Below, piece by piece: positions 1-5,478 of a stretch of DNA of 5,478 nucleotides. The position numbers were made by a program, and so were the translations under genes. Origin of the DNA: JALXCG01 sp026991065 [NCBI: Gemmatimonadota bacterium] (GTDB taxonomy: Bacteria; GCA-2686955); the NCBI GenBank assembly GCA_026991065.1, contig JALXCG010000520.1, positions 1 to 5,478 of the forward strand, given 5' to 3'. Position 1 is the first letter of the stretch; every line of letters begins with the position of its first letter. The notes beneath the pieces were generated by a model. That model made no database searches, was not told where the DNA came from, and was given only the letters and a program-made list of their open reading frames with translations.

Positions 1-1679
1 CCCAACGAGAGCGGGATCGAGGGATCGATCGACACTGCACGCCGGCAATGGTTGCAAAGAGTGCGAACCAGTCGCTGGGCAACGATGATGTTGATCGCGT
101 GAGCGATCAGGAAGGGCTCGATTCCCAACTTGTAGAGCCTGGAGACTGCCGAAGGCGCATCGTTGGTGTGCAGAGTGGAGAAGGTCAGATGGCCGGTGTT
201 GGCGAGTTTGATGGCGATGTCGGCGGTGGTCTTGTCGCGCATCTCTCCAACCATGACGATATCGGGGTCATGGCGAAGGATGGCGCGCAGCGCCTGCTCG
301 AAGTTCAGCTTTGGATTGAGCTTGACCTGGCGGGCGCCGGGAATGATGTACTCCACGGGATCTTCGACGGTTATCGCGTTCAGAGAGGGGTTGAGCACGC
401 GGTGCAGCGCCGCGACCAGGGTCGTCGATTTCCCGCTCCCGGTTGGCCCTGTGAGAATGATGATCCCTTGCGGACGCCGCACGGCGCTCTCGAAATCCTG
501 CCGCGCCTGCTCAAGAAAGCCGATCGCCTCAAGATCCGTGATCAGCTTGCGATCGTCGAGCACCCGCAGCACGGCACTCTCCAGCCGGCGCCGATTCTCC
601 TGGCCAACGATCGGTAGAATCGATACCCGAAAGCGGATGTTGTGCCCGTCGATATCCCGCTGGATATATCCATCCTGGGCGGCATCACGCTCAAAACGGT
701 CGACGTTGCGCGCGCGATCCTTGACCACCGCGATGATCGCCTCCGGGTTCAGCCCGTTCTGCTCCAGCCACAGTTGTAGTCGGCCATCCACGCGAAAACG
801 GATCTGCACACCATCCACACCGGATGGCAGGATGTGAATATCACTGGCACCGCGCCGCACAGCTTCGAGAAGGCAGCCTTCCACCAGATTGGTGAGCGCG
901 GAGTGATGGATCTCGATGACCTCCTCCGGTTCGCTCTCCTCGGTGCCGGAAAACTCCTCGTCAACTTGTCCAAGATCGCGCAGGTATCGGTTGTCGTCCT
1001 GTATGGCCCGATCAAAGAACTCGCGCACCCTGGCGCGTGGCGCGAAAAGCAACTCATAGCGCGCCAGTCCCATCTGCCGCGTAAGACGCACAATCCGCGG
1101 ATCCGTGGGAACCGGAGTGGCCAGCCGCACGGGCGTGCCGTGCCGGTCGCGGTCGGCGAAGGGCGCCAGCGGTACATCACGCAGTTCCGCCAATATCTCG
1201 TCGGGGAGGTCCATCAGGAATCGAATGGCGAACTCCAAGGCATCGTCGGGCACCGCCTCTTCGCTGAGTTCGACCTCCTGAAACCCATACATGGAAGCGA
1301 TTTCCCGGGCCACCGCATCTTCGGGGACCCCACACTCCATGGTCAGAATCTCGCCCAAGCGCCGGCGTGAATCCGCCCCCTCCCCGCTTTGAATCTGCAG
1401 CGCCCGCTGCAACACGTGCTCGCCGATGATCCCGCGCTTGACCAGGCGTGTGCCGATGCGATCGGTGGCTTTGATCTCCAGCCGCCGATCCTGATCCGTC
1501 GTCCGATACTGCGCCGGTTCGCCCACCGAACCCGGTGCCGCCGCCAGCACTTCGAGATCCGAGTCGCTCCGGTGGGACGACATCGACGACACCCGCGACA
1601 CTGTCGGCGTGGCCTCCACGGGGGTCTCGCCAGGAGTATCCGCGCCTTCTCCGCGCCTGGATGCGAAGGGCAGCCTCAA
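1..1679 (-). CDS. pilB: Type IV pilus/type II secretion assembly ATPase, PilB/GspE family (3' end cut off by window edge)
   Basis: This is a cytoplasmic hexameric ATPase that powers pilin assembly through the PilC/GspF platform. Translating the minus strand gives 559 residues before the edge. A variable, probably disordered stretch (1-70) precedes a MshEN/GspE N-terminal domain (about 73-220). ASDIH follows at 278-282, Walker A GPTGSGKSTT at 411-420, an Asp box with VEDPVEY around E439-D440, Walker B HDPDIVMVGEMRD with catalytic Glu about 479, and a His box TLHTNDA with His504. Cys542 and Cys545 are the first CxxC of the PilB zinc site; the second CxxC and roughly 100 or more residues lie outside the window. 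All ATPase motifs are intact. The chosen start is a TTG that overlaps the TGA of pilC, implying translational coupling. An ATG at codon 33 (5' base 1583) is the alternative, since the first 70 residues are not conserved-looking. Sequence alone does not fully separate PilB from GspE; the neighbouring pilin and pilC favour a pilus-like role. Confidence 0.95.
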   Translation of the reverse strand, partial: MRLPFASRRGEGADTPGETPVEATPTVSRVSSMSSHRSDSDLEVLAAAPGSVGEPAQYRTTDQDRRLEIKATDRIGTRLVKRGIIGEHVLQRALQIQSGEGADSRRRLGEILTMECGVPEDAVAREIASMYGFQEVELSEEAVPDDALEFAIRFLMDLPDEILAELRDVPLAPFADRDRHGTPVRLATPVPTDPRIVRLTRQMGLARYELLFAPRARVREFFDRAIQDDNRYLRDLGQVDEEFSGTEESEPEEVIEIHHSALTNLVEGCLLEAVRRGASDIHILPSGVDGVQIRFRVDGRLQLWLEQNGLNPEAIIAVVKDRARNVDRFERDAAQDGYIQRDIDGHNIRFRVSILPIVGQENRRRLESAVLRVLDDRKLITDLEAIGFLEQARQDFESAVRRPQGIIILTGPTGSGKSTTLVAALHRVLNPSLNAITVEDPVEYIIPGARQVKLNPKLNFEQALRAILRHDPDIVMVGEMRDKTTADIAIKLANTGHLTFSTLHTNDAPSAVSRLYKLGIEPFLIAHAINIIVAQRLVRTLCNHCRRAVSIDPSIPLSL

Positions 1680-3022
1680 TGGTAGATCCCGGGTGGTGTC
1701 GGATGAATCATCGCGGTTTCCGACGACACCACAGTGATCCCAACCATCACGATGGTGATCAGGAGCGCGCTCCAGATCTGCACCAGATCGACCACTGCCT
1801 TAAGGCGATAGGTGGTTTCCGATTCGTAGTAGTTCGCTAGTTGCAGGGCGGTCTTGCGCAGAGTTCCGGTTTCCGCGCCGGTTCGCAGTCGAGATATTGC
1901 GGTTTGGGTAAAGATGCCTGTGCTCTCCAGGGCTTCAACAAAGCCGGTTCCAGTGCGGACCATGCGCGGCAGAACCTCCTCCTTGATGCGTTTTTCGAAA
2001 TAGCGGTTTTGACACGACTCCGCGGCGACCCGAATCACCTCAATGTTGTCCCCCGAACCGCTGTAGGTCGCATGGAACACGCGGCAGAAAATCTCGATCG
2101 CGGTTTTCTGCAGGATGGATCCGATCACCGGAACCTTGAGCGAATACTCATCCAGCCAGAGCCTGCTCCGCGGGTGACGAAACACCAGAATGCCTCCGGC
2201 CAGGATCGCGAACAGGCCGCCAGCGATCGCAAGATGATGGGCAAAGACATAGTCCTTGAACGCGAGCGTCGCTCCCGTCATGGGCGGCATTTCGATCTTG
2301 TACTTGATCAGCAGATCGGCGGTCTTCGGAAAGATGTAGCCAACATAGAACCAAATCACGCCGAGCAAGGCCAACGCCGTGAACATCGGCATGAGCAGAG
2401 CCGAGCGCATCATCTTGCTGAATTCCGCGCGCCGCTCCAGGAACTTGGCGGCGGATTCATAGACTTCCACCATGTTGCCACTGGTCGAGGCGATGCCGAG
2501 CATATAGGCGGGAAAACGCCCAAATATGCCCTTGTGCTTGCCAAAGACCTCGTGACCGCTGCGGCCGTCTTTCAAGTCGCTCTGGATCTCTTCCAGCGCT
2601 TCGCGCATGGCGCGATTGGGGAAATCGTTCTTCAAAAGGGAGAGGATCTCGTCGTACGGCAAATGCTCGCGCAGAAGATCCGCGGAGAGCCGCATGAAAG
2701 TCACAACATCCCGGAAAGAGGGCTTGAACAGCGGTCCGAACCAACGTGGCCGCACAGCTTCAACCCGATAGCCGGCCTTCACCAGCGCCGCTTCCACCTC
2801 GGCGGCGGTAAACGCCTTCTGCTCCCCCTTGATTACACTACCGGTGGCCCGCCGGGCTCTGAAGCAGAACGTTTTGCGCTGCTGAACGCCGGTCAAACGC
2901 AAGGCTTTCGACCGAGCAATCTCGGTTGCGCGGCGCCGCGCTTCCCGCCCGTTGGCGCAATGCAGAATCCCGGTGACCGGGCGATTCCGCGTGTTCACTC
3001 CTTGGTATCGATATACTGGCAT
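1676..3022 (-). CDS. pilC: Inner-membrane platform protein of type IV pilus/type II secretion, PilC/GspF family
   Basis: This is a polytopic membrane protein that links the assembly ATPase to pilin extraction. The 448 residues contain two T2SSF domains (about 104-228 and 306-430). Matching signatures appear in both: FMRLSADLL...LPYDEIL with STSGNM in the first, and FCRVFHATYSGSGDNIEV with AETGTL in the second. Hydrophobic segments lie at about 207-231, 264-281 and 411-433, the usual three-segment topology. The N-terminus is longer than usual: residues 3-47 and about 52-92 look like two copies of the small GspF N-terminal domain. A short polar tail (434-448) follows the last membrane segment. 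The ATG start gives a natural MPVYRYQG beginning; upstream is only a weak purine-rich GAGAGA ribosome site. The gene lies 233 bases downstream of the pilin, and its stop overlaps the TTG start of pilB. GspF is the alternative name; family assignment is firm. Confidence 0.95.
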   Translation of the reverse strand: MPVYRYQGVNTRNRPVTGILHCANGREARRRATEIARSKALRLTGVQQRKTFCFRARRATGSVIKGEQKAFTAAEVEAALVKAGYRVEAVRPRWFGPLFKPSFRDVVTFMRLSADLLREHLPYDEILSLLKNDFPNRAMREALEEIQSDLKDGRSGHEVFGKHKGIFGRFPAYMLGIASTSGNMVEVYESAAKFLERRAEFSKMMRSALLMPMFTALALLGVIWFYVGYIFPKTADLLIKYKIEMPPMTGATLAFKDYVFAHHLAIAGGLFAILAGGILVFRHPRSRLWLDEYSLKVPVIGSILQKTAIEIFCRVFHATYSGSGDNIEVIRVAAESCQNRYFEKRIKEEVLPRMVRTGTGFVEALESTGIFTQTAISRLRTGAETGTLRKTALQLANYYESETTYRLKAVVDLVQIWSALLITIVMVGITVVSSETAMIHPTPPGIYH

Positions 3023-3172
3023 GGTCTCTCTGCCTGGCTGAGTTTGTGCCGGCGATCACCCCGAGACACTGATCTTGCCGCTCCCTAGTCCACCCGACCC
3101 TCCGCCCCGCTCAATCCGCTTCTCTCTCGGACTGCGGCGCGCGATCACACATTGCTCGATGTTGGCGAAGGC

Positions 3173-3205
3173 AATCCCCGAGAAGCTCGACACTTCCCGG
3201 GGATT
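3173..3205 (-). other. Strong hairpin between pilin and pilC, possible partial terminator or mRNA-stabilising stem
   Basis: AATCCCCG (3173-3180) pairs with CGGGGATT (3198-3205). After one A/C mismatch, GAAG (3182-3185) pairs with CTTC (3193-3196) around a 7-base loop. That makes 12 pairs, the strongest hairpin seen in the 233-base gap, starting about 50 bases after the pilin stop. There is no T-run downstream on the minus strand, so a classical intrinsic terminator is unlikely. A processing or decay-blocking stem that raises pilin mRNA over pilC/pilB is the favoured reading. Confidence 0.45.
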
Positions 3206-3255
3206 CTGCCTGCCCCCGGCCCCCTACCGAACCGGGAGAATCCTACTCGCTGGTG

Positions 3256-3669
3256 TCATCGATCAGTGACCGACAGGGAAGCCCCCGATGGCGTCACCGT
3301 GCAAAGAACCGTCACCGGTGTGGAATTGCCATCCGCATCTTCCACGCCAACGCCCTGGATCACGACCAGCGTGTCATTCCCCGCCGTGGAGATTGAGAGC
3401 GTGCCGTTGTCATTGGTCGGCGTCGAGGTCAACTTGGCGATTCCGGCGGCATCCGCGGTCAAACCGGTGAATGACTTGCCGCCGCCTCCCATGCTGGTCG
3501 GCTTGCGGAAGTACTGCTGCGCTCGCGAAGCGATATTCAGCAAGTCATTCGATACGGCGTCGAGATTGGCGTTCGCGGCATTTTCGTTGAACATCGTGAT
3601 ACCCACCACGGTCGCAATACCGACGATGATGGCGCCCAAGACGATAAGAAGGATTTGTTGCTGGCCCAT
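3256..3669 (-). CDS. Pilin-like protein with non-canonical N-terminus
   Basis: The product is 137 residues. It begins MGQQQILL and has one hydrophobic helix (about 6-27), then an amphipathic helical stretch (about 28-56), a glycine run (61-64), and a Thr/Ser/Val-rich region that looks like beta strands, with a single Cys at 123. This is the layout of a type IV pilin or pseudopilin: an N-terminal helix that packs into the filament and a C-terminal beta head. It differs from the classical class in having no charged leader beyond Met-Gly and no Glu at position +5 of a Gly-cleaved form, where Leu7 would sit. Whether a prepilin peptidase cuts after Gly2 is unknown. The ATG has GGAG eight bases upstream. 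The gene is first in the inferred unit with pilC and pilB and lies below a sigma-54 promoter match, which fits an abundant filament subunit. The pilin role rests on context and architecture, not on a conserved signature. Confidence 0.8.
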   Translation of the reverse strand: MGQQQILLIVLGAIIVGIATVVGITMFNENAANANLDAVSNDLLNIASRAQQYFRKPTSMGGGGKSFTGLTADAAGIAKLTSTPTNDNGTLSISTAGNDTLVVIQGVGVEDADGNSTPVTVLCTVTPSGASLSVTDR

Positions 3670-3677
3670 GCGTGTAT

Positions 3678-3681
3678 CTCC
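3678..3681 (-). promoter_or_regulatory. Shine-Dalgarno sequence of the pilin gene
   Basis: GGAG on the minus strand lies eight bases before the ATG at 3669. It is the clearest ribosome binding site in the window and fixes the pilin start. Confidence 0.65.
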
Positions 3682-3699
3682 AGGGGGAAGGCATTGAGT

Positions 3700-3750
3700 G
3701 GAACCACCGCACTTCGGTGTTCCTCCGAGACGCGAGGCCTCGGCGCTCTC
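3700..3750 (-). promoter_or_regulatory. Structured 5' leader of the pilin mRNA: two adjacent stem-loops
   Basis: At 3700-3723 the arms GGAAC/GTTCC and ACCG/CGGT pair with a single bulged base and a 5-base loop. At 3727-3750 the sequence can fold with outer arms GAGA/TCTC around an imperfect GC-rich palindrome centred on GAGGCCTC. Both lie within the leader predicted from the sigma-54 promoter and leave the ribosome binding site free. Such stems can protect an abundant mRNA from 5' decay; they could also form in DNA only. No known riboswitch class is recognised. Confidence 0.4.
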
Positions 3751-3765
3751 GCTACAGTGCGGTCT

Positions 3766-3781
3766 TGCACGGCGCGTACCA
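3766..3781 (-). promoter_or_regulatory. Candidate sigma-54 (-24/-12) promoter of the pilin gene
   Basis: The minus strand reads TGGTACGCGCCGTGCA. Against the sigma-54 consensus TGGCACG-N4-TTGCA it matches 10 of 12 specified bases. The essential GG (3780-3779) and GC (3768-3767) are present at exact spacing. The start site would be near 3755, giving a leader of about 86 bases. Sigma-54 with a PilR-type activator is a known way of driving pilin genes in several bacteria. The match was found by eye, with no genome-wide background rate. Confidence 0.55.
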
Positions 3782-3820
3782 ATTCACGCTTTCTCGCAGT
3801 CCGCGGCGTTCAAGTAATTG

Positions 3821-3845
3821 GACGGCCGTCACTTATCCTTGACGG
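3821..3845. promoter_or_regulatory. Dyad upstream of the pilin promoter, possible activator (enhancer) site
   Basis: A perfect 6-base inverted repeat, CCGTCA-N8-TGACGG (3826-3845), overlaps the palindrome GACGGCCGTC (3821-3830), so three related half-sites are clustered. The centre is about 80 bases upstream of the inferred sigma-54 start site, where NtrC/PilR-type activators often bind. The binding protein is inferred, not recognised. Confidence 0.35.
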
Positions 3846-4027
3846 TTTGCGGCGGGGGCACAGCCCAGCGAAAAGGGAGATTGCCCAAGTCTTGAGCAGC
3901 CGCTACTGCGGTCTGATGTGCGGCCCCGCCCCAAGCCGGCGCTCGCGTGAAGCGGCGAGCAGCTTATTCCCCAACAACTTATGAACCTGGCGACAAATTG
4001 CTTCCGGGATCTACCGGGCATGATTAG

Positions 4028-4073
4028 GGCGGCTGCGCGATTCCCACCGTTGAACCGCGCTTGAACAGCCGCC
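4028..4073 (-). terminator. Long inverted repeat after the helicase-like gene, possible terminator
   Basis: GGCGGCTG (4028-4035) and CAGCCGCC (4066-4073) are exact inverted copies, and inner GCGC arms (4036-4039 and 4057-4060) can also pair with a one-sided bulge. The structure begins about 50 bases beyond the TAG stop at 4124. There is no U-rich tail, so if it ends transcription it may do so inefficiently or together with Rho. Its position between the helicase-like gene and the pilin promoter supports a boundary role. Confidence 0.3.
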
Positions 4074-4123
4074 ACGCGAAAGGAACGGAGGACCACAGCG
4101 GGAATCGAGGTTCTGCTCTTCCT

Positions 4124-5478
4124 CTATTCGAGCAGCGCGTTGAGCAAAGCGATGGCCCCGCGGCGCGTCTTCTGGTCGTAGTCCGGTTCGGGCAGTTGGA
4201 GACGCGCGGGACGGACCGGAGGCCCCATATTCCCAGCTTCCAGGTCAGCCAGGGCATCGCGCAGCAGGTCCGGCAGGAGTTCAAGAGCGGCAACCGCCGC
4301 ACCGGTGCCGAATGGAACTGCCTCGTGCAGGAAGACCCCCCCGCCATCAAACCCAGCGTGGGAAGGGTAGGCGGCGGCCACAACCTCGCCGAAAAAGCGA
4401 GCATCAATCCGCCAAAGCAGCCGCGAGCGGAGCAGGTGTGCGATGCATGCCAGCGCGGCCCCATATTCCGCACCAACGGCAATCGCTGCCTGGGCTGTGG
4501 CCGGCTGAAAATCGAGCCACATTGCTGTAGTCGGATAGGCGGTGGTGAAGGGCGGATCGAGTTCCATGCGTTCGGCCTTGCGACCACCGGTCTTGATCAA
4601 ATCATAGGATGAAACAGCATCAAACACTTCAAGGCGACCCAAAACCGGCAGAGAGCCATCGGCAAGCGGCGGTCGTGTTTCCCGTACTTCGAGGATTTCG
4701 TGGTGACGCCTTAACTGCGGCCTGGTCGCACGGCCAGCAGCAATTGCGCGGCGCTTTTCAAAGGTCACCCGTACCTCGCGCTCCTCCTGATCGACCGCGC
4801 GAACGCGCAGGGGTTGGTCCGCGATATGAAAGATCGCCCCCGGATGCGCGCGAAAAGCCAACTCTCCGTGCGAGAGCGTGCCGAGAAGCTCTGAGCGCCG
4901 TCCATGGGTCAGAACACGAAATGGCTCCCGCTCGATCAAGTCAGGTTGAATCAGCAGCTCGATCGGCTCCCACCCCTGATAGCGCCAGGCTTCACCGTGG
5001 CGCCCCTCTTCCGCCCGCTCCTCGCGTACCAGGCGCCGATCAAAAGGTGCCAAACGCTTCCACGCTCCAGGTCCAAACCAACGGTCATCCGCGCGCACAA
5101 AGGGTGCTTCGGCGCTGGCGGCGAGCAGATGATCGAGGTAAATCGCTTCCGATGCCGGGTCACACGCAGCGTAGCGGGCAGATGGAACAGGATGCGCTTC
5201 GATCCAAGCCGCGGCCTCAGGCGAGCGAACAATCCAGACGCCGCAGGCCATGGGCGGAGCCTGCCCCGGCCGCAGTCGTACCACCGGGACCGAGTGTGCG
5301 GCGGCGCCCAAAGCAGCCCGGATCGCCTTGACTGTGGCGCGACGTTGCTTACCGCCGACACTCCCCGCACTCTCCTGGACGATAACCCACGGAACTGTAC
5401 GCCGGGCGGGAGCCTCTTCTCCGCGGTCTGAATGAGTCAGGAGCGTGGCCCGGGCGCCGAGCAGAGACCGCCCATGGT
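4124..5478 (-). CDS. C-terminal part of an MrfA/Hrq1-like DEAD/DEAH helicase-family protein lacking the family's cysteines (5' end outside window)
   Basis: The frame is open from the right edge, giving 450 visible residues to a TAG stop, so the true start lies outside; a TTG at 5311 is an unlikely start. By recall, the order of motifs follows the C-terminal half of Bacillus MrfA. WIEAHP is followed by a DHLLAASAEAPF segment (family: DHLxCAAxELPF), then a beta-rich domain with HPGAIFHIADQPLRV (family: HxxAIYLHQ...YxV), then GRLEVFDAVSSYDLIK, a TTAMWLDF element, and a DUF1998-like region ending FLHEAVPFGTG (family: FLYDxYPGGxG). Members normally bind a metal through a CD cysteine and a CxC...CPxC cluster. 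Here RID stands at 4403-4411 and a cysteine-free tail at about 4196-4240. The sequence before WIEAHP has no recognisable QxxGRxGR motif VI. The reading frame is clean, so this seems a divergent, possibly non-helicase relative and not a fresh pseudogene. The helicase core, if any, is off-window. A DrmB-like DUF1998 protein is an alternative. Confidence 0.65.
   Translation of the reverse strand, partial: HGRSLLGARATLLTHSDRGEEAPARRTVPWVIVQESAGSVGGKQRRATVKAIRAALGAAAHSVPVVRLRPGQAPPMACGVWIVRSPEAAAWIEAHPVPSARYAACDPASEAIYLDHLLAASAEAPFVRADDRWFGPGAWKRLAPFDRRLVREERAEEGRHGEAWRYQGWEPIELLIQPDLIEREPFRVLTHGRRSELLGTLSHGELAFRAHPGAIFHIADQPLRVRAVDQEEREVRVTFEKRRAIAAGRATRPQLRRHHEILEVRETRPPLADGSLPVLGRLEVFDAVSSYDLIKTGGRKAERMELDPPFTTAYPTTAMWLDFQPATAQAAIAVGAEYGAALACIAHLLRSRLLWRIDARFFGEVVAAAYPSHAGFDGGGVFLHEAVPFGTGAAVAALELLPDLLRDALADLEAGNMGPPVRPARLQLPEPDYDQKTRRGAIALLNALLE

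What the first reader, a model, noticed from the sequence alone, without database searches (positions are those of the whole stretch)
3256..3669. Pilin-like protein with a two-residue leader and no Glu5
The first gene of a PilB/PilC cluster starts MGQQQILL and runs directly into a hydrophobic helix. Classical type IV pilins and pseudopilins have a longer charged leader ending in Gly and a conserved Glu at mature position 5, which neutralises the N-terminus during assembly. Neither is present. Either a prepilin peptidase cuts after Gly2, leaving a Gln-rich N-terminus, or the subunit is assembled unprocessed. Both would be an unusual filament chemistry. The gene order and promoter suggest a real and abundant subunit.
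Basis: partly seen in the sequence, partly recalled or inferred. Interest (0 to 1): 0.65.

Follow-up and report, generated by a model that had tools for sequence, protein, structure and literature searches.

The report
Pilus subunits made without a leader
This gene most likely encodes the main subunit of a type IV pilus-like filament made directly in its mature form, part of a family of machines found mostly in genomes without the leader-cutting enzyme that type IV pili were thought to need.

Summary
ORF 3256-3669(-) begins MGQQQILL with no upstream start. 66 of 66 distinct relatives counted begin M-G with Gln5 and no charge at positions 2-20; one divergent paralogue, left out, begins MKSQ.

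It is pilin-like: one long helix plus a four-stranded sheet, with type IV pilins filling the first 14 VIA rows. It opens an operon with PilC, PilB and, in relatives, PilT, PilN-like, PilO-like and secretin genes.

Cutting after Gly2 is not supported; unprocessed assembly is. In the class of the Melioribacter MAG, 106 of 197 genomes carry the family, 103 of them with PilC, but only 8 have a prepilin peptidase, all 8 with classical pilins. Among diverse genomes with PilC but without this family, 86 of 89 have one. Three minor-pilin-like genes also lack leaders. A contig with exactly the Melioribacter roseus chromosome length has the operon; its authors reported pilA and pilD 'not found'.

Best reading: a type IV filament needing no prepilin peptidase. 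Filament formation is inferred, and the window's own genome does encode two A24 proteins.

The parts
3256..3669 (-). leaderless major pilin-like subunit (137 aa, MGQQQILL...)
   Evidence: ORF and start; family; fold:
3678..3681 (-). GGAG ribosome-binding site, 8 nt before the ATG
3505..3666 (-). predicted long N-terminal helix (residues 2-55), membrane part first; the pilin alpha-1 equivalent
   Evidence: AlphaFold2 model
3262..3405 (-). predicted four-stranded antiparallel sheet (residues 89-136); the pilin head
   Evidence: AlphaFold2 model; VIA matches to type IV pilins
1676..3022 (-). PilC/GspF-type inner-membrane platform protein (448 aa)
   Evidence: PF00482 E 1.5e-28; 64.5% identity to the nearest relative's PilC
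3..1679 (-). PilB-type extension ATPase, 3' end cut off by the contig end; Walker A (GPTGSGKST) readable in the translation
   Evidence: PF00437 E 6e-88; TIGR02538 E 3e-93, under its cut-off; translation
3023..3255 (-). pilin-pilC spacer with a strong hairpin (13-bp stem), no T-run
   Evidence: RNA fold -100.1 kcal/mol, z -2.48; no terminator-like site; role not tested

Best explanation
The protein is the major subunit of a type IV filament (T4aP-like: PilC, PilB, PilT, PilN-like, PilO-like, secretin) whose subunits are made without a class III leader. Synthesis starts at MGQQQ, and the hydrophobic N-terminal helix inserts N-in/C-out without a positively charged leader. N-terminal Met removal by methionine aminopeptidase (Gly2 is present in 66 of 66 counted members) would expose a free N-terminal Gly, the job that PilD does elsewhere. 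PilB and PilC then extract the helix into a filament, primed by a leaderless complex of three minor subunits (here called V, W and X) and retracted by PilT. The Glu5/N-terminus contact is replaced by something else; the Gln3-Gln5 collar is the obvious candidate. Shown: start site, absence of leader, near-fixed N-terminus, operon content, absence of a recognisable peptidase gene in most carriers of one class, predicted fold. Inferred: filament formation, Met removal, role of the glutamines, assembly order.
For: Start site and invariance. Operon order in relatives. The M. roseus second ATPase passes the curated TIGR01420 PilT cut-off, 331 against 319.1 bits, and the G227 secretin matches PilQ (E 7e-27, under its cut-off); PilN match E 4e-7. 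Peptidase: 8 of 197 genomes have PF01478, all 8 carriers and N_methyl-positive; 98 of 106 carriers have none and 95 of 106 have neither peptidase nor N_methyl. Four of those 95 have a first contig as long as the whole (rounded) genome. Controls: PF01478 rings in 12 of 14 named genomes and in 86 of 89 diverse genomes that have T2SSF but not this family. In 26 carrier genomes A24 follows classical pilins: 11 both, 11 neither, 3 N_methyl only, 1 A24 only; in that last one the A24 gene lies in what reads as a Tad locus. MGQQQ and PilC co-occur in 103 of 197 genomes, with 3 and 2 singletons; of the two PilC-only genomes, G191's PilC begins at base 87 of its contig and G170 has an ordinary leader-bearing system. 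Weak whole-genome hits of the window protein include ordinary leader-bearing pilins (G062 E 4e-4, three copies; G064 E 0.007), which ties the family to pilins by sequence. V, W and X genes lie inside the pilus operon in L148, L149 and L157, and a V-W-X cluster is in the window's genome. The N-terminus is the same in carriers with and without A24. [quoted passage not shown] roseus, 3,300,414 bp; G267:C1 has exactly that length and carries two subunit genes (one GTG start), the machine genes and a V-W-X cluster.
Against: No filament, N-terminal sequence or mutant has been seen. Model confidence is moderate (pLDDT 73.9). Foldseek's best E is 0.19, and VIA Z 8.4 is near what the tool calls common, though type IV pilins fill the first 14 rows; one of them (9laa) aligns in another register. 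Profile alignment to classical pilins scored 24.9, but a PilO-like N-terminal helix scored 22.0, so that score does not prove homology. The window's own genome and 11 other of 26 carriers have A24 proteins. No curated family covers the protein. X-like minor subunits mostly carry one Lys or Arg at position 3 or 4 (37 of 40 have a charge at 2-20), so they could be said to keep a vestigial charge. In the M. roseus-length genome the secretin reads in two frames, and in G279 PilC is interrupted. A peptidase too divergent for PF01478 cannot be ruled out. Completeness is not told for the class genomes, and related genomes are not independent.
Confidence: 0.8

Rival explanations
1. A prepilin peptidase cuts after Gly2, giving a subunit that begins with Gln; the leader has shrunk to two residues.
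For: Gly2 is present in 66 of 66 counted members, and the window's genome encodes two A24 proteins.
Against: 98 of 106 carriers in one class have no PF01478 hit, including four genomes whose first contig is as long as the genome. No positive charge before the helix in 66 of 66. Alignments to PAK pilin, FimA, geopilin and leader-bearing pilins place Gly2 at about -2. V- and W-like minor subunits begin MNTGQ, MGFST and the like, with no common Gly at one place.
Confidence: 0.08
2. The protein is a small membrane accessory of the machine and not the filament subunit; the true pilin is elsewhere or unrecognised.
For: No curated pilin family matches the window protein; fold matches are moderate.
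Against: It is the first gene of the operon, with 1-3 tandem divergent copies sharing an almost fixed N-terminus, which is the pattern of pilins. In 95 of 106 carriers no N_methyl pilin or A24 is found. The predicted fold has the pilin layout, and weak sequence hits reach ordinary pilins.
Confidence: 0.08
3. The locus is a decaying or repurposed remnant (for example a secretion or signalling complex) that no longer makes filaments.
For: Loss of PilD could be read as decay; PilC is interrupted in G279, and the secretin of G267 reads in two frames.
Against: The PilT Walker motifs are intact in 12 of 12 aligned sequences. Gene order is conserved across distant MAGs, with near-perfect co-occurrence. 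The N-terminus is nearly invariant.
Confidence: 0.04

Closest known systems
Type IVa pilus (T4aP): PilE/PilA, PilB, PilC, PilT, PilM-O, PilQ, PilD
   Same: Extension and retraction ATPases, platform, PilN-like and PilO-like proteins, secretin; pilin-like predicted fold; a set of minor subunits
   Different: No class III leader on the major or minor subunits read here, no Glu5 in the major subunit, and no recognisable PilD in most carriers of one class
Type II secretion system pseudopilus (GspG-K, GspE, GspF)
   Same: Homologous ATPase, platform and secretin; small, medium and large minor subunits in that order (order of GspI-J-K recalled)
   Different: A PilT homologue is in the operon; no leaders; GspO missing in most carriers of one class
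MSHA pili
   Same: In print, MSH loci lack a peptidase gene of their own (PMC6668835, passage)
   Different: That paper found MSH only in genomes where T2SS, T4aP or Tad supply a peptidase; here most carrier genomes of one class have none
Archaeal gene clusters reported without a prepilin peptidase (Nanoarchaeota, some Nanohaloarchaeota)
   Same: A review and a genome paper note no peptidase found (PMC4471445, passage; PMC9563170, passage)
   Different: Archaeal clusters; no leaderless pilin family is described in the passages seen
Tad/Flp pili
   Same: Short hydrophobic subunits (recalled)
   Different: Flp leaders are cut by TadV (recalled). One carrier, G046, has a separate locus that reads as Tad and holds its A24 gene

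Membership tests
Type IV pilin | Hydrophilic class III leader ending in Gly or Ala | tested here: not met
   Start fixed at MGQQQ; 0 of 66 members have a charge at residues 2-20; no upstream start in 62 of 66
Type IV pilin | Hydrophobic N-terminal helix of 20-25 residues opening a long alpha-1 | tested here: met
   Helix 2-55 in the model
Type IV pilin | Glu at mature position 5 (often, not always: PMC10191384, passage) | tested here: not met
   Position 8, the aligned place, is Leu in 62 of 66; counted position 5 is Gln in 66 of 66
Type IV pilin | Lollipop fold: alpha-1 plus antiparallel sheet | tested here: met
   Predicted model only, pLDDT 73.9; VIA best 1oqw Z 8.4, rmsd 3.3, 120 aligned; Foldseek E 0.19
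Type IV pilin | Curated sequence family match | tested here: not met
   No pilin family for the window protein in Pfam or NCBIfam; among 35 relatives ComP_DUS is matched by 3 and PilE_C by 1, best E 0.0015
Type IV filament machine (T4aP-like) | Extension ATPase, platform, retraction ATPase, secretin | tested here: met
   PilB and PilC in the window; PilT and secretin homologues in relatives; not readable in the window's own contig, which ends in PilB
Type IV filament machine (T4aP-like) | PilM, PilN, PilO | tested here: inconclusive
   PilN E 4e-7; PilO best hit E 0.031; PilM half only weak (NF045709), its model too poor to use
Type IV filament machine (T4aP-like) | Prepilin peptidase (A24) in the genome | tested here: not met
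   Absent in 98 of 106 carriers of one class and 14 of 26 carriers of mixed origin; present in the window's own genome
Type IV filament machine (T4aP-like) | Extracellular filament | not testable with these tools
   Needs microscopy

The most novel reading that the evidence does not exclude
A separate, widespread class of type IV filament in which major and minor pilins alike are synthesised in mature form, so that the prepilin peptidase and its N-methylation, held to be invariable parts of the machine, are dispensable. Methionine aminopeptidase supplies the free N-terminus of the major subunit, and a glutamine collar there, with an Asp near the start of many W-like and a Gln or Glu at position 5 of most V-like minor subunits, replaces the Glu5 chemistry.
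Probability: 0.65. Interest if true: 0.9.

Novelty: new variant of a known kind. Interest (0 to 1): 0.8.

Why it matters
Reviews describe the prepilin peptidase as invariably found in type IV filament machines and as part of the ancestral five-protein core (PMC4471445, passages; PMC10191384, passages). A class of bacteria with the machine, leaderless subunits and mostly no peptidase would show that leader cutting and N-methylation are not needed for assembly. It would explain why surveys that look for a class III leader can miss these pili, and it would settle a loose end in print: the 'missing' pilA and pilD of Melioribacter roseus (PMC3534657, passage). It also makes the roles of Glu5 and of the pilin N-terminus testable in a natural system without them.

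Tried and rejected
Upstream start giving a normal leader: rejected. Cleavage after Gly2: see rivals. MacB_PCD, SprA and DUF2613 Pfam hits are below cut-off and judged chance; MacB_PCD was also hit by 8 of 35 relatives, best E 0.00066. Sequence match to solved pilins is weak (geopilin E 0.71 for the single sequence; E 0.017 for the profile). Profile-profile alignment of the first 60 residues with 39 classical pilins from carrier and class genomes scored 24.9, above 100 of 100 column-shuffled controls, but a PilO-like membrane helix scored 22.0, so it is not used as proof of homology. The same test gave no useful alignment for the V-like and X-like families. The second AlphaFold job, on the PilM/N-like protein, gave pLDDT 51.2 and was not searched. 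In the N-terminus counts, hits not beginning in profile positions 1-3 were left out: 3 of 82 (major), 6 of 51 (X), 6 of 44 (V), 15 of 44 (W), before removal of duplicates. The 11 distinct W-like proteins left out begin without a leader too, but only 6 have an Asp at position 5 or 6, and 5 have none there, so the Asp8 of the 26 of 27 counted is not general. The X-like gene scored in 26 of 26 carrier genomes, but several hits are short and weak (for example G117, E 6e-4) and are not claimed. Ten literature searches gave no description of leaderless pilins in the listings or in the passages I opened: (open-licence PubMed Central only; most listed papers were not opened). Papers were seen as 'find' passages only.

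Full report
WHAT IS THERE. The window is a 5,478-bp contig (G000:C520) of a 4.14-Mb metagenome-assembled genome, 83.8% complete. On the minus strand run an ORF of 137 aa (3256-3669), a PilC-type platform protein (1676-3022) and a PilB-type ATPase cut by the contig end (3-1679); upstream lies part of a helicase (4124-5476). The 137-aa protein starts MGQQQILLIVLGAIIVG. Its frame is open for 38 codons upstream without a start codon, and GGAG lies 8 nt before the ATG.

THE START IS REAL. Relatives were found in 21 loci of public genomes (MAGs labelled Gemmatimonadetes, Bacteroidota or Bacteroidetes, Ignavibacteria, Balneola, Melioribacter, Cloacimonadota) and in 6 of 98 genomes, the window's own included, at E 8e-8 or better. 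In 37 homologues the start codon, 35 ATG, 1 GTG and 1 TTG, stands directly before the conserved N-terminus, and 33 have no other start upstream in frame. Over all loci held at that time, 66 distinct members begin M-G and have Gln at position 5; 65 begin MGQQQ and one MGTNQ; none has a charged residue at 2-20; 62 have no upstream start. Left out of that count was a divergent paralogue in L022 that begins MKSQLAILL. One search used the motif itself as one of six search patterns; searches did not, and members read from them are in the count. Tandem paralogues with divergent heads keep the same N-terminus.

FOLD AND KINSHIP. AlphaFold2 on the 35-row alignment (mean pLDDT 73.9) gives one helix, residues 2-55, then four strands within 89-136, the layout of type IV pilins. 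Foldseek alone is not significant (best E 0.19, an Acinetobacter type IV pilus). In the VIA second look the first 14 rows are all type IV pilins, some truncated or fused, led by full-length PAK pilin (Z 8.4, rmsd 3.3, 120 aligned). The tool warns that such Z values are common, so the fold is support, not proof. Four further genomes matched weakly: in G062 (E 4e-4, three copies) and G064 (E 0.007) the matches are ordinary leader-bearing pilins (MNRKGFTLIE... and PRGFTIIE...), while those in G063 and G075 look like chance. PAK pilin, FimA, the geopilin profile match (E 0.017) and these two all align with the subunit numbered three ahead of the mature pilin; the Shewanella PilA row 9laa gives another offset (model 1 to chain 5). 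In the majority register the subunit carries three more residues (M-G-Q) than a mature pilin, Gly2 sits at -2, and Leu8 stands where Glu5 would be.

THE MACHINE. In the nearest relative (L002, 85% identical subunit) and in eight loci taken from other genomes (L102-L109), the order is subunit (1-3 copies), PilC, PilB, second ATPase, about 510-580 aa, about 295 aa, secretin; in L107 two small ORFs lie between the subunit and PilC, in L104 PilC is interrupted, and in L103 the secretin reads in two frames. The second ATPase of L103 exceeds the curated PilT cut-off (331 against 319.1 bits), and the secretin of L102 matches PilQ (E 7e-27, under the cut-off). The 510-aa protein matches PilN of a solved pilus machine at E 4e-7 in its C-terminal part, and the 295-aa protein has PilO as its best but weak hit (E 0.031). 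A PilM half is likely but not shown. A protein of 900-1,181 aa follows in the eight loci L102-L109; the one scanned (L102) is a hybrid histidine kinase.

NO RECOGNISABLE PREPILIN PEPTIDASE. In the class of the Melioribacter MAG (G111; class name inferred from record titles), the same 197 genomes were searched. The family is in 106, PF00482 (PilC) in 105, PF01478 (prepilin peptidase) in 8, and PF07963 (class III pilin N-terminus) in 13. Family and PilC occur together in 103 genomes, apart in 3 and 2. Of the two PilC-only genomes, G191 has PilC beginning at base 87 of its contig, and G170 holds an ordinary leader-bearing system. All 8 peptidase genomes are carriers with N_methyl pilins. 98 of 106 carriers lack the peptidase, and 95 lack both. 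Four of those 95 (G227, G267, G279, G294) have a first contig as long as the rounded genome size: 3,742,376, 3,300,414, 3,566,706 and 3,856,466 bp. Completeness is not told for the class genomes. As a control, in 98 genomes, nearly all from other families, PF00482 is in 95 and PF01478 in 91. Without this family, 86 of 89 PilC genomes have a peptidase; the three others are G007 (82% complete), G033 (89%) and G018 (100%, unexplained). The same peptidase search rings in 12 of 14 named control genomes; one miss is Lactococcus lactis, which does ring for N_methyl. In 26 carriers of mixed origin, A24 follows classical pilins: 11 both, 11 neither, 3 N_methyl only, 1 A24 only. That last A24, in G046, lies among genes that read as a Tad locus (TadE-type N-terminus recalled; a secretin hit by BLAST). 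Classical pilins read from the N_methyl loci have the usual leader and G|FTLIE (52 matches, repeats included).

LEADERLESS MINOR PILINS. Beside the subunits of G254, inside the pilus operons of G056, G035 and G191, and after the secretin of G099, lie three genes in the order small (V), medium (W), large (X). Counted members begin typically M[NGS]TGQ (V: 34 distinct; Gln5 in 29, Glu5 in 3; a charge at 2-20 in 4), MG[FST][ST]T (W: 27 distinct; Asp8 in 26) and M(G)GK/R (X: 40 distinct; 37 with a charge at 2-20, mostly one Lys or Arg at 3 or 4), then run into a hydrophobic helix. Members left out of that count (mostly W) are leaderless too, but of 11 distinct W-like ones 6 have Asp at 5 or 6 and 5 have none there. 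X is found in 86 of 197 class genomes, 84 of them carriers. In the window's genome, contig C723, X (E 2e-93) is preceded by V-like and W-like genes that an early ORF listing had hidden (profile hits E 2e-27 and 6e-30; L142). In the counted W family the core T-I-[LI]-D lines up with T-L-I-E of classical pilins, in the same offset of three; that Asp stands in for Glu5 is a reading, not a test.

A NAMED, CULTURED CASE. Contig G267:C1 has exactly the 3,300,414 bp reported for the single chromosome of Melioribacter roseus. [quoted passage not shown] Here the same contig holds two subunit genes (one with a GTG start) directly before PilC, the machine genes (secretin in two frames) and a V-W-X cluster, and the genome has no PF01478 or PF07963 match. 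The identity of G267 rests on the length alone.

HOW IT MOST LIKELY WORKS. Subunits are made in final form and inserted with the N-terminus inside. Met removal, which Gly2 would permit, gives a free amine; PilB and PilC build the filament and PilT withdraws it; the V-W-X trio caps it. The first step (no leader) is shown; the rest is inferred from homology. In the window's organism, which has two A24 proteins and classical pilins, cutting cannot be excluded by gene content, but the same N-terminus in genomes without a recognisable peptidase makes it unlikely to be needed.

LIMITS. No experiment exists. Counts within a class are not independent. A peptidase too far from PF01478 would be missed. 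Absence from print rests on ten searches of open-licence papers (listed under Tried and rejected); the nearest precedents seen are archaeal genomes or clusters noted as lacking a peptidase.

Noticed in passing
window 3023-3255 (-): Strong hairpin (13-bp stem) between the subunit gene and pilC, no T-run; could stabilise the subunit message or damp pilC expression.
   Followed up: partly
window 4124-5476 (-): Part of a DExH helicase (TIGR03817 E 8e-6, HRQ1-like winged helix, both under cut-off), 5' end beyond the contig; a similar weak WHD_HRQ1 hit lies upstream of the operon in L002.
   Followed up: no
window 3-1679 (-): PilB N-terminus resembles the MshE-type c-di-GMP-binding motif (NF053729, 29.7 bits against a cut-off of 38).
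   Followed up: no
L102-L109: A protein of 900-1,181 aa, a hybrid histidine kinase in the one scanned, follows the secretin, with small response-regulator-like ORFs in most: a likely dedicated control system.
   Followed up: no
genome G018: 100% complete, has PF00482 but neither a PF01478 peptidase nor this family: another possible unusual filament.
   Followed up: no
L104 (G279), about 3175-4100: The PilC frame is interrupted in a genome whose main contig is 3.57 Mb; subunit and PilB are readable; decay or a sequencing error.
   Followed up: no
L103 (G267), about 6581-7878: The secretin gene reads in two frames in the contig that has the M. roseus chromosome length; sequencing error or real break.
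   Followed up: partly
G294:C1:2518637-2519617: A classical PilC-like frame with one in-frame TAA in a genome with no peptidase or N_methyl match: looks like a dying ordinary system beside the leaderless one.
   Followed up: no
L022 47-472 (+): Paralogue beginning MKSQLAILL next to an MGQQQ gene in a Cloacimonadota MAG: the only major-family member seen with Lys2.
   Followed up: partly
L153 1704-4457 (+): A 917-aa protein sits between the secretin and the V-W-X cluster in G046; a tip adhesin is possible.
   Followed up: no
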